The notes under the pieces are model-generated. The model saw nothing but the letters and a program-made list of their open reading frames with translations. It was not told the origin of the DNA and did no database searches. Of a DNA stretch of 64,000 nt, positions 31,585 through 62,940 are shown in pieces. Numbering within the stretch: position 1 is the stretch's first letter; each line of letters starts with the position of its first letter. The translations under genes and the position numbers were made by a program. Location of the stretch: positions 1 to 64,000 of the forward strand of contig FZLS01000007.1 in assembly GCA_900197625.1 (NCBI GenBank), read 5' to 3'. This DNA is from Rhodobacteraceae bacterium Water-Bin34. Lineage in GTDB: Bacteria; Pseudomonadota; Alphaproteobacteria; Rhodobacterales; Rhodobacteraceae.

Positions 31585-31596
31585 TATTTATAAATA
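31585..31596. promoter_or_regulatory. Palindromic divergent late promoter
   Basis: TATTTATAAATA reads as TATAAATA on both strands: 31589-31596 on the plus strand (EF-hand gene, ATG 62 nt away) and 31585-31592 on the minus strand (63-aa gene and fibre, ATG 43 nt away). The two elements share 4 bp. Confidence 0.78.
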
Positions 31597-48111: not shown

Positions 48112-48123
48112 TATTTATAAATA
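48112..48123. promoter_or_regulatory. Second palindromic divergent late promoter
   Basis: TATTTATAAATA: TATAAATA on the plus strand (48116-48123, ahead of the gene at 48163) and on the minus strand (48112-48119, ahead of the small membrane genes). Confidence 0.78.
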
Positions 48124-60431: not shown

Positions 60432-60507
60432 GCGCCTGTAACTCAGTGGATAGAGTATCGGTCTACGAAACCGAAGGTCATATGTTCGAATCATATCAGG
60501 CGCGCCA
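60432..60507 (+). tRNA. tRNA-Arg (ACG)
   Basis: 76 nt: acceptor GCGCCTG paired with CAGGCGC, TTCGAATC T-loop, anticodon loop CTACGAA giving ACG (read after A34 to inosine if host TadA acts), encoded CCA. Confidence 0.95.
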
Positions 60508-60782: not shown

Positions 60783-60813
60783 TTGACAATAAGTCGATTT
60801 TGTGATATAAATA
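60783..60813 (+). promoter_or_regulatory. Early promoter with overlapping late element for tmRNA
   Basis: TTGACA (60783-60788), 17 nt, TATAAA (60806-60811); the same bases form the late element TATAAATA (60806-60813). The tmRNA would be available in both phases. Confidence 0.78.
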
Positions 60814-60817
60814 AACA

Positions 60818-61110
60818 TGTAAACGTTGAAGCAACGTGAAATTGGATCGGACTCGGGGGCAGTACCCGACAGCTCCACCAAAAACATACTAGTGTCCAGT
60901 TAAGTTTGGAACACATCTGATAAAGTGGCTAGTATGTTTTTGATGGGGCTGATATTAGGATCGACGGACGATGTAGTGAAGTGGAGTTTACCGGATGATC
61001 GCGTATAGATCAACATAAACTAAATGCAAATGAAAATTTCGCACCATCTGGATTAGCCTTAGCGGCATAATCACAGGGAGTTGGCCACTTACTTAGCAAC
61101 AGAAAAGTGG
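60818..61110 (+). ncRNA. ssrA: Two-piece circularly permuted tmRNA
   Basis: Acceptor piece first: T-stem TCGGG/CCCGA with 7-nt loop and the 3' end CAGCTCC-A-CCA at 60870-60880. A loop segment 60881-60944 carries a perfect 13-bp helix (arms 60880-60892 and 60931-60943 approximately) that joins the two pieces. The coding piece starts GGGGCTG (60945-60951), pairing with CAGCTCC in a 7-bp acceptor stem with G-U at pair 3, the alanyl-tRNA synthetase identity. The tag frame 61026-61070 encodes ANENFAPSGLALAA then TAA; a CCACTT/AAGTGG helix (61085-61110) follows. The 5' end is inferred from the promoter. The arrangement is that of alphaproteobacterial tmRNA. I could not establish the long P2 helix by eye. 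Confidence 0.88.
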
Positions 61111-61134
61111 TAATTAAATTATTATGAGGATATT

Positions 61135-61686
61135 ATGTCAAGCAAATTAAAAGAGCTTACTTGGGCTCATCACCAAGCAGCAGAACGTAGAGCATTTGCA
61201 AAAGAATTACTTTCCGGCAGTATAGATCCAGCACTATACCACAAGTTTCTTTGTGCACAGTACATGAACTATGAAGTACTCGAGCGCAATGCTATCATTC
61301 CACCAAATCTAAACAAAATTAAAAGATCAAGACGTATCTTTCAAGACATTCGTGAGCTTGAACAGCATTTTGGTCTTGAACCATCAGGAAAGTTTCCTCC
61401 ATCAGTATCTAAATATGCAGCACATATTAATGCATTAGCAGATGCTGACGATAATCATTCGTTACTTGCACATATGTATGTACGCCATTTTGGTGAATTG
61501 CACGGTGGTCAAATGATTAAAAAGAAAACACCTGGAAGCGGACTTATGTACGAGTTCGATGGAGATACTAAAGTACTTATCGCTGAATTCAGAGAGTTAC
61601 TAGATGATAGTATGGCTGATGAAGCAAAGAGATGTTTTGACTTTGCGTCAGAACTCTTTGATGAGTTATCTAAAGAAATAGATTGA
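61135..61686 (+). CDS. hemO: Heme oxygenase
   Basis: 183 residues of the HO family: proximal His at 12/13 ('LTWAHHQAAERRAF') and the distal 'HMYVRHFGELHGGQMI' region. Opens heme to biliverdin IX-alpha, CO and iron with ferredoxin electrons. Immediately follows the tmRNA and precedes the bilin reductase unit, so it supplies biliverdin for the reductase at 62260. Similar pairs occur in oceanic phages. Confidence 0.93.
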   Translation: MSSKLKELTWAHHQAAERRAFAKELLSGSIDPALYHKFLCAQYMNYEVLERNAIIPPNLNKIKRSRRIFQDIRELEQHFGLEPSGKFPPSVSKYAAHINALADADDNHSLLAHMYVRHFGELHGGQMIKKKTPGSGLMYEFDGDTKVLIAEFRELLDDSMADEAKRCFDFASELFDELSKEID

Positions 61687-62095: not shown

Positions 62096-62276
62096 AAAAC
62101 GAACAGTTACTCATACACCTTCTCCCGTAGTGTGTTTTACTTCTTATTGGAAGAATACAGGAGAAAAAGAGGTATATAGTGACAACAAGGGTCATAAAAA
62201 GACAAGAGATAAACTTGTATTAGTATATGACGAAAATCCAGAATACAGAGGTAGATCAAATGCAGTTGTGGGATAG
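62079..62276 (+). CDS. Small protein overlapping its neighbours (65 aa)
   Basis: 65 residues, basic, with 'KKRTVTHTPSPVVCFTSYWKNTGEKEVYSDNKG'. It starts within the preceding gene and ends inside the bilin reductase gene (17-nt overlap each side). Probably translated in a tightly packed operon; function unknown. Confidence 0.5.
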   Translation: MIFPVKKRTVTHTPSPVVCFTSYWKNTGEKEVYSDNKGHKKTRDKLVLVYDENPEYRGRSNAVVG

Positions 62277-62940
62277 ATTAAATGAATACGCTTATCAGCT
62301 GACAACTAAATTTGATAGTCACTTTGATCGTTTCGATAATAAAAAGTATACTCAAGCTATGCATTTTACTGGTTGGACCGATACTTTTTGGAGATCAGAA
62401 CTCGTATCAAAGGCACATTTAAAAACTATTGAACCACCGAATGGTAAAGGTTTATGGTTAATGCATGTTAATATCTTTCCACACGAAGGATATGAATTAC
62501 CTATTTTAGGCTTTGATATTGTTGCTGGTCCAAAGAAGATTACTGGATCATTTATGGATTATAGTCCATTACACGGATTTCCGCATCCTTATCATGAGGA
62601 AATGGAAAGAACTGTTAAAAACTTAGAGTGGAATAAAGCTCGTGAATTACCACCTTGGGCAAAAGATATATTCTCAGATGATATGATCGCAGTTGGTAAC
62701 ATTAATACTGATGAAGAATTAGATCAATTTATTGAAGTTACAACTCATTTAGTAGATCATTATCTTGAAAATTTAAAAGAGAATGCTTTTGTATCTCATC
62801 GTAATACCCTTCCAATACTTAATAAGTATTGTTCAAACCAAAAGTTAAACCCTCATCTTCATAGATCTATTCTTGCAATGGGAATATCAGAAGAAGATAA
62901 AAACGCTTATGTGAATGATGTATTATTTGAGGAAAAGTAA
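62260..62940 (+). CDS. pcyX: Ferredoxin-dependent bilin reductase, PcyX-like
   Basis: 226 residues from ATG 62260-62262, with AGAGG upstream. Core 'HEGYELPILGFDIVAGPKKITGSFMDYSPL' holds the conserved Asp86 (in GFD) that protonates the bilin, and the C terminus 'EEDKNAYVNDVLFEEK' matches the PebS/PcyX ending. Reduces biliverdin from the upstream heme oxygenase to a phycobilin (phycoerythrobilin in known phage enzymes) with ferredoxin electrons. The phage ferredoxin at 12129 is a possible donor. The alternative ATG at 62227 has a poor ribosome site. Confidence 0.88.
   Translation: MQLWDRLNEYAYQLTTKFDSHFDRFDNKKYTQAMHFTGWTDTFWRSELVSKAHLKTIEPPNGKGLWLMHVNIFPHEGYELPILGFDIVAGPKKITGSFMDYSPLHGFPHPYHEEMERTVKNLEWNKARELPPWAKDIFSDDMIAVGNINTDEELDQFIEVTTHLVDHYLENLKENAFVSHRNTLPILNKYCSNQKLNPHLHRSILAMGISEEDKNAYVNDVLFEEK

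What the first reader, a model, noticed from the sequence alone, without database searches (positions are those of the whole stretch)
60818..61110. Circularly permuted two-piece tmRNA carried by a phage
Acceptor piece precedes the coding piece, the two ends pair into a 7-bp acceptor stem with G-U at position 3, a perfect 13-bp helix bridges the intervening segment, and the tag frame reads ANENFAPSGLALAA. A phage-borne tmRNA of this alphaproteobacterial type could keep ribosomes free and tag truncated proteins during host shutdown. It also pins the host lineage. Early and late promoter elements overlap at its 5' end.
Basis: partly seen in the sequence, partly recalled or inferred. Interest (0 to 1): 0.85.

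Follow-up and report, generated by a model that had tools for sequence, protein, structure and literature searches.

The report
Phage tmRNA with swappable excised segment
A virus of bacteria carries its own two-piece ribosome-rescue RNA, a kind already known, but the stretch predicted to be cut out of it folds into a conserved long hairpin whose contents appear to be exchanged between phages and in some relatives include a small gene.

Summary
Window 60818-61114 is a permuted (two-piece) tmRNA gene on a T4-like phage contig: Rfam tmRNA_permuted 94.9 bits, alpha_tmRNA 93.3 bits; tag ANENFAPSGLALAA, whose frame is under purifying selection in relatives. Phage two-piece tmRNAs were already reported in marine phages (PMC9004378, passages).

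New here is the intervening segment (60881-60944). Its helix covaries in fixed register across 65 non-redundant phage precursors (pairs 1-11), only weakly in 37 bacterial ones. It continues the acceptor stem through the CCA, with a C-A mismatch (56 of 65) beside the predicted RNase P site. The contents behave as exchangeable cassettes: the window and sister contig L139 are 99.6% identical over 6,870 columns, yet 20 of 28 differences lie in 90 bases covering the segment. In other phages the segment carries small protein-coding frames. RNA processing and function are inferred, not shown.

The parts
60783..60813 (+). promoter: -35 TTGACA (60783-60788), 17-nt spacer, -10 overlapping a T4-late-type box TATAAATA (60806-60813)
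   Evidence: only exact copy in window; promoters of this kind upstream of many phage tmRNAs, 0 of 64 bacterial ones
60818..60880 (+). acceptor piece of the permuted tmRNA (T arm, acceptor 3' strand, encoded CCA); mature 5' end inferred
60881..60944 (+). intervening segment, predicted to be removed: helix arms 60881-60893 and 60928-60940, UGAU 60941-60944 facing ACCA, inner two-hairpin cassette
60945..61114 (+). coding piece of the tmRNA (acceptor 5' strand, D-arm region, tag frame, last pseudoknot region); 3' end approximate
61026..61070 (+). tag reading frame ANENFAPSGLALAA plus stop
60432..60507 (+). tRNA-Arg(acg) upstream in the same orientation
61135..61686 (+). heme oxygenase gene (PF01126) just downstream; frequent neighbour
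   Evidence: of the best 80 viral heme-oxygenase loci, 45 have at least 1.8 kb upstream held and 34 of these have a permuted tmRNA upstream on the same strand (not deduplicated)

Best explanation
This is a working phage-owned permuted tmRNA gene. Shown from sequence: the tRNA-like domain with the alanine identity pair, the tag frame under selection, the promoter, and an intervening segment that pairs back on itself in line with the acceptor stem. Inferred: the gene is transcribed from a strong sigma-70-type promoter, possibly again late from the overlapping box. The precursor folds so that acceptor stem, ACCA/UGAU region and segment helix form one stack of 23 pairs broken only by C74-A(-2). 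RNase P cuts between U(-1) and G1, other host RNases trim after CCA, and the segment falls out, leaving two pieces. AlaRS charges the RNA, host SmpB brings it to ribosomes stalled on broken mRNAs, and products are tagged for ClpXP. The helix keeps the two ends together and lets its contents vary, so the excised segment is a tolerated place in which RNA or small-gene cassettes are exchanged between phages.
For: Rfam and ARAGORN calls (2, 3); G3-U70 in the window. Tag: 29 distinct nucleotide versions in the window family, summed over pairs 1796 synonymous against 1014 non-synonymous codon differences, expected synonymous fraction 0.26. Segment helix: a run of at least 8 bp in fixed register in 132 of 160 distinct viral precursors from two scans whose patterns end at CCA, and of at least 10 bp in 116; with 3' arms swapped between phages 20.3% and 7.0%; bacteria 6 and 4 of 64. 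Pairs 1-11 reached by 0 of 1000 shuffles. Window type. UGAU before GGGG in 125 of 160 viral, 3 of 64 bacterial; PMC9433436 (abstract and passages) reports A(-2)U(-1) as optimal for RNase P and leader-RCCA pairing as inhibitory. Exchange: of 100 pairs with interior identity of at least 0.85, 47 have core identity of at most 0.80 (median of all pairs 0.71); of 160 pairs with core of at least 0.90, 119 have interiors below 0.60. Sister contig L139: 20 of 28 differences within 90 of 6,870 columns.
Against: No RNA data. No SmpB was found in the bin, so the partner must come from a host that is not identified. RNase P is hindered by leader-RCCA pairing (PMC9433436), so the long stack could slow cutting. 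Rfam scores are low beside bacterial copies (window 94.9; the 30 best score 148.8-165.6). Helix pairs 12 and 13 do not covary in general (11 and 815 of 1000 shuffles reach them), and bacteria show a weak signal at pairs 2, 3 and 5 (3-5 of 1000 shuffles reach them). Only 4 of 6 named phages have the helix register with at least 8 bp. Viral contigs are metagenome assemblies and may hold chimeras, as the mismatched halves in L006 could be.
Confidence: 0.72

Rival explanations
1. The segment hairpins are selfish palindromic elements that insert into tmRNA genes and elsewhere; the helix is the element's own terminal repeat and has nothing to do with processing.
For: The same cassettes occur outside tmRNA genes: window type in 3 of 18 hits (L423, and L428/L429, a free 25-bp hairpin; L428 and L429 are identical over 3,952 bases, so one case); a second cassette in 4 of 24 (L442, L449, L453, L455, one context by eye) and a third in 1 of 14 (L458) (one search lists six of the 24 as outside, two of which are tmRNAs with a variant acceptor). 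Interiors are swapped.
Against: The helix covaries across segments with mostly different interiors and starts at a fixed place, directly after CCA and four bases before GGGG. Minimal segments of 25-30 nt (L004, L144, L172) are little more than the helix. No target-site duplication was established; the repeats at L481 look like ribosome-binding sites (my reading).
Confidence: 0.22
2. The phage tmRNA is a decoy or inhibitor of host trans-translation, as suggested for RNAs like the tag-less tmRNA of phage DS6A.
For: PMC4131195 (passages) notes that a molecule similar to the DS6A sequence strongly inhibits tmRNA, perhaps by titrating SmpB.
Against: The tag frame is complete and under purifying selection; 133 of 183 phage tags found end in ALAA, the finder requiring a start AN and an end AA, AS or SA. 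A decoy needs no tag.
Confidence: 0.08
3. A host tmRNA captured recently by the phage, kept without function.
For: Alphaproteobacterial type; ssrA fragments are known from prophages (PMC9004378, passages).
Against: Phage tmRNAs group apart from the bacterial ones sampled; the family motif was found in the GTDB contigs only twice, in bins labelled Bacteroidetes or Muricauda; tag and helices are maintained.
Confidence: 0.04

Closest known systems
Two-piece tmRNA of methylophage Melnitz and pelagimyophages (PMC9004378)
   Same: Permuted alphaproteobacterial-type tmRNA in marine T4-like myophages; the Melnitz copy has the same segment helix register and UGAU (L230).
   Different: Different phage group (polymerase at best 44.8% to a listed phage record); the words intervening, secondary structure, acceptor and RNase P do not occur in that paper's main text.
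Rfam RF04321 tmRNA_permuted and RF01849 alpha_tmRNA
   Same: Order of pieces, tRNA-like domain, tag, above cut-off.
   Different: In the structure lines the segment is an unpaired loop closed by the acceptor stem, without the long helix.
Tag-less tmRNA of mycobacteriophage DS6A (PMC4131195, passages)
   Same: Phage-borne tmRNA.
   Different: That one is little more than the tRNA-like domain; the window's has a full tag.
Intervening sequences of permuted tmRNAs holding a tRNA-Ala or a repetitive element (PMC11915505, passages)
   Same: Precedent for inserts in the segment that is removed.
   Different: Single cases in bacterial or nominally archaeal genomes; family-wide exchange, helix or protein frames are not in the passages seen.

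Membership tests
permuted two-piece tmRNA | covariance model score above curated cut-off | tested here: met
   94.9 (cut-off 47) and 93.3 (cut-off 50)
permuted two-piece tmRNA | acceptor piece before coding piece, 7-bp acceptor stem, G3-U70, encoded CCA | tested here: met
   window sequence; in relatives G3-U70 was required by my search patterns, so no count is offered
permuted two-piece tmRNA | tag frame with resume codon, stop and proteolysis-type C terminus, conserved | tested here: met
permuted two-piece tmRNA | precursor cut into two RNA pieces | not testable with these tools
   needs RNA data
permuted two-piece tmRNA | SmpB partner available | tested here: inconclusive
   no PF01668 match in the bin; host unknown
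host tmRNA captured from the infected bacterium | groups with tmRNAs of one bacterial lineage | tested here: not met
   the label bacteria (45 rows) needs 2 changes; one viral row (L059) lies inside them
self-splicing intron or known ribozyme | matches a known family | tested here: not met
   no such match in the window's segment up to E = 5; only microRNA and tmRNA models

The most novel reading that the evidence does not exclude
The excised segment of phage permuted tmRNA genes is a dedicated cargo site: a covarying helix secures removal by tRNA-processing enzymes, so phages can trade structured RNAs and small protein genes inside a working RNA gene, much like an intron without a splicing machinery; the released segment may itself be a phage small RNA.
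Probability: 0.45. Interest if true: 0.82.

Novelty: new variant of a known kind. Interest (0 to 1): 0.62.

Why it matters
Phage tmRNAs are known, but I found little work on them. A conserved precursor helix that buries the CCA end, with a mismatch where RNase P should cut, gives a testable rule for how two-piece tmRNA is made. If the segment is a cargo site, it is a simple route by which genes and RNAs can sit inside an RNA gene without harming it, in a place where gene callers are unlikely to look.

Tried and rejected
Host pinning by tmRNA: rejected. A phage-specific loss of the helix block after the tag: rejected, because bacteria show both the short and the long form (position of CAACAGA 147-163 and 184-195). 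Known RNA family in the window's segment: none; around the cassette in L455: none but one chance-level match. Target-site duplication at L481: the repeated GGTGGAGGCA looks like the ribosome-binding site before each of two genes. Late-promoter call from window counts: not supported. A riboswitch in the segment was looked for only through Rfam. No structure prediction of proteins was run.

Limits of the counts: the segment parser found 95 of 120 loci of scan 1, 107 of 114 new loci of scan 2, 40 of 80 heme-oxygenase loci, 6 of 7 bin copies, 6 of 7 named-phage copies, 2 of 2 loci and 64 of 71 bacterial loci; the rest were dropped, and identical acceptor-plus-segment sequences were merged, leaving 201 phage and 64 bacterial. 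It required CTCC (or TTCC) before the ACCA and GGGG, which forces G3-U70. Covariation used 140 segments of at least 30 nt from the two scans, cut to 65. Interior identity was taken over the longer interior, so length changes lower it, and near-equal interiors were sought only within 12 nt of length. The 50 pairs of the identity profile were chosen for interior of at least 0.88 and core of at most 0.82, so it shows where the step lies, not that there is one. The tree used 70 of 108 phage representatives and 45 of 63 bacteria. Bacterial loci were the 30 best-scoring, 20 of long span and 20 others. The frame test covered segments of at least 120 nt (34). The codon counts of the 43-aa family included one misaligned row (L508); one search gives them without it.

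Full report
What is there. The window is bases 1-64000 of contig 105 (70,986 bases) of a 3.6-Mb metagenome bin. The contig carries T4-like DNA polymerase, two topoisomerase II subunit genes, an SbcC-like endonuclease subunit and a helicase. The best listed polymerase match is 44.8% (Phage C48C1, Kyanoviridae), and megablast of 40000-64000 finds nothing in 50,697 phage records. At 60818-61114 lies a permuted tmRNA. A promoter, TTGACA-17-TATAAATA, lies directly upstream.

The bin. RF04321 matches eight places in the bin. One is on contig 169, with fumarase and LptD genes, a bacterial chromosome. Contig 69 carries a family-B DNA polymerase and a DnaB-like helicase, contig 173 a DnaB-like helicase. 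Contig 172 matches the window at 72-83% over stretches and has a row of frames of nearly the same lengths. Contigs 57, 174 and 256 were not typed beyond a ribonucleotide reductase gene on 256. In a class sample 133 of 142 genomes match, nearly all of them once, so I read the eight as several phages in one bin.

Tag. Tags were found in 183 of 201 distinct phage copies; 133 end in ALAA (the finder required a start AN and an end AA, AS or SA). In the window family the codon differences, summed over pairs, are 1796 synonymous and 1014 non-synonymous, expected synonymous fraction 0.26. This argues that the frame is translated. That the ANDNF start and the LAA end are adaptor and ClpX signals is recalled, not from a call.

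Lineage. A tree of 214 columns outside the segment, with 70 phage and 45 bacterial rows, keeps the bacterial rows together except that one viral row (L059) falls among them (2 label changes; shuffled mean 36). By my reading of the printed tree the branch below them has SH-aLRT 99; 59 of 112 inner branches are under 80, and the tree is unrooted. The family with the motif is not one clade (6 changes). Three of the window's five nearest rows are from the same bin; the bin's chromosomal tmRNA lies among the bacteria. The tmRNA therefore does not name the host.

The segment helix. In phage precursors the helix begins at the first base after CCA and ends four bases before GGGG. In two scans whose patterns end at CCA, 132 of 160 distinct copies have a run of at least 8 bp in this register and 116 at least 10. 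The arms share some sequence, so swapped partners reach these in 20.3% and 7.0%. Bacteria: 6 and 4 of 64. With 65 representatives under 75% identical in the arms, pairs 2-11 form in 46-64 of 65 and pair 1 in 40; no shuffle of 1000 reaches any of pairs 1-11, while 11 reach pair 12 and 815 reach pair 13. Pairs 2-12 show five or six pair types each. Sliding the register drops pairing from 0.79 to 0.33-0.52. In 37 bacteria pairing is 0.49 against 0.39-0.49 when slid, with a weak excess at pairs 2, 3 and 5. The four bases UGAU face ACCA: A73-U(-1) in 59 of 65 (bacteria 28 of 37), C75-G(-3) in 54 (8 of 37), A76-U(-4) in 60 (19 of 37), and C74 meets A(-2) in 56 (18 of 37). PMC9433436 (abstract and passages) reports that leader-RCCA pairing hinders RNase P and that A(-2)U(-1) is optimal. 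I read the conserved mismatch as the RNase P entry point; this is inference.

The contents are exchanged. Among 147 phages with interiors of at least 30 nt, 100 pairs share an interior (0.85 or more); 47 of them have cores no more alike than 0.80, for example interior 1.00 and core 0.70 for L169 and L303. Conversely, of 160 pairs with cores of at least 0.90, 119 have interiors under 0.60 and 23 of at least 0.85. In 50 pairs picked for the contrast, identity is 0.95 in the interior, 0.89-0.94 in the inner arms, 0.79-0.81 in the outer arms and 0.69-0.82 in the mature parts outside ACCA. The window shows it directly: L139, a viral contig assembled apart (IMG/VR 3300034777_000258; whether its sample is that of the bin is not known), has 28 differences in 6,870 columns, 20 of them within 60881-60970, two of these just past the segment. 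Both versions fold with the helix.

Cassettes outside tmRNA. The window-type cassette is in a tmRNA segment in 15 of 18 viral hits. L428 and L429, identical over 3,952 bases, hold it in a free 25-bp hairpin between genes; L423 has it beside a remnant with the last pseudoknot sequence. Two other cassettes lie outside in 4 of 24 and 1 of 14 hits.

Small frames. Of 34 segments of 120 nt or more, 19 hold a frame longer than expected at p of 0.05 and 13 at 0.01; 15 do not. Of ten frames searched, one (L377) matches Pfam DUF6356 at 6.5e-12, above cut-off, and one (L085) a PHROG at 1.7e-4. A 43-aa family is found at 56 viral loci. 38 pass a strict test for lying in a tmRNA segment; of the other 18, by eye 11 have tmRNA flanks of variant sequence, L502 has only the acceptor half, L508 is cut by the contig end, and five (L481, L486, L492, L498, L519) lie elsewhere. 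Its codon differences, without the misaligned L508, are 2513 synonymous and 1904 non-synonymous, synonymous fraction 0.57 against 0.18 expected (27 distinct frames). In L481 it looks like an ordinary gene between two others. The window's own 64-nt segment was not tested for a frame; it is too short for the families seen.

What is in print. Two-piece tmRNA in marine phages is known (PMC9004378: 53 of 133 unique phage tmRNA structures two-piece, 50 of these marine or aquatic; passages). Searches and 97 of the held open papers listed no title on the segment of phage tmRNAs; several lists were capped (20 of 187, 20 of 118, 15 of 726, 10 of 12). One founding paper on two-piece tmRNA is not held; others were not looked for.

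Noticed in passing
window 61135-61686 and 62227-62940: Heme oxygenase (PF01126) and a ferredoxin oxidoreductase family gene (phrog_7278) follow the tmRNA, a bilin-type pair by my reading; pelagiphage Mosig has a heme oxygenase next to a putative phycocyanobilin:ferredoxin oxidoreductase.
   Followed up: partly
bin G000: No SmpB match in a bin rated 100% complete, although it has a chromosomal tmRNA.
   Followed up: no
L442, L449, L453, L455 (about 2727-2836 of L455): A tmRNA-segment cassette sits in a stretch between tRNA genes of large phage tRNA arrays; no Rfam family fits.
   Followed up: partly
L428 529-612, L429: The window-type cassette in a free perfect 25-bp hairpin between two phage reading frames.
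   Followed up: partly
L006 (bin contig 172): The two acceptor halves of this tmRNA do not match at pair 5, as if a crossover or assembly join fell within the shared segment.
   Followed up: no
window 31585-31596 and 48112-48123: Two sites where TATAAATA occurs on both strands back to back, each between divergent reading frames; the frame after 48116 is a tail tube gene.
   Followed up: no
L471, L477: A second cassette-like stretch follows the 43-aa frame within one tmRNA segment (by eye).
   Followed up: no
L007 (bin contig 256): tmRNA with an odd ARAGORN tag, GNQSDYLLAA, 63.4 bits.
   Followed up: no
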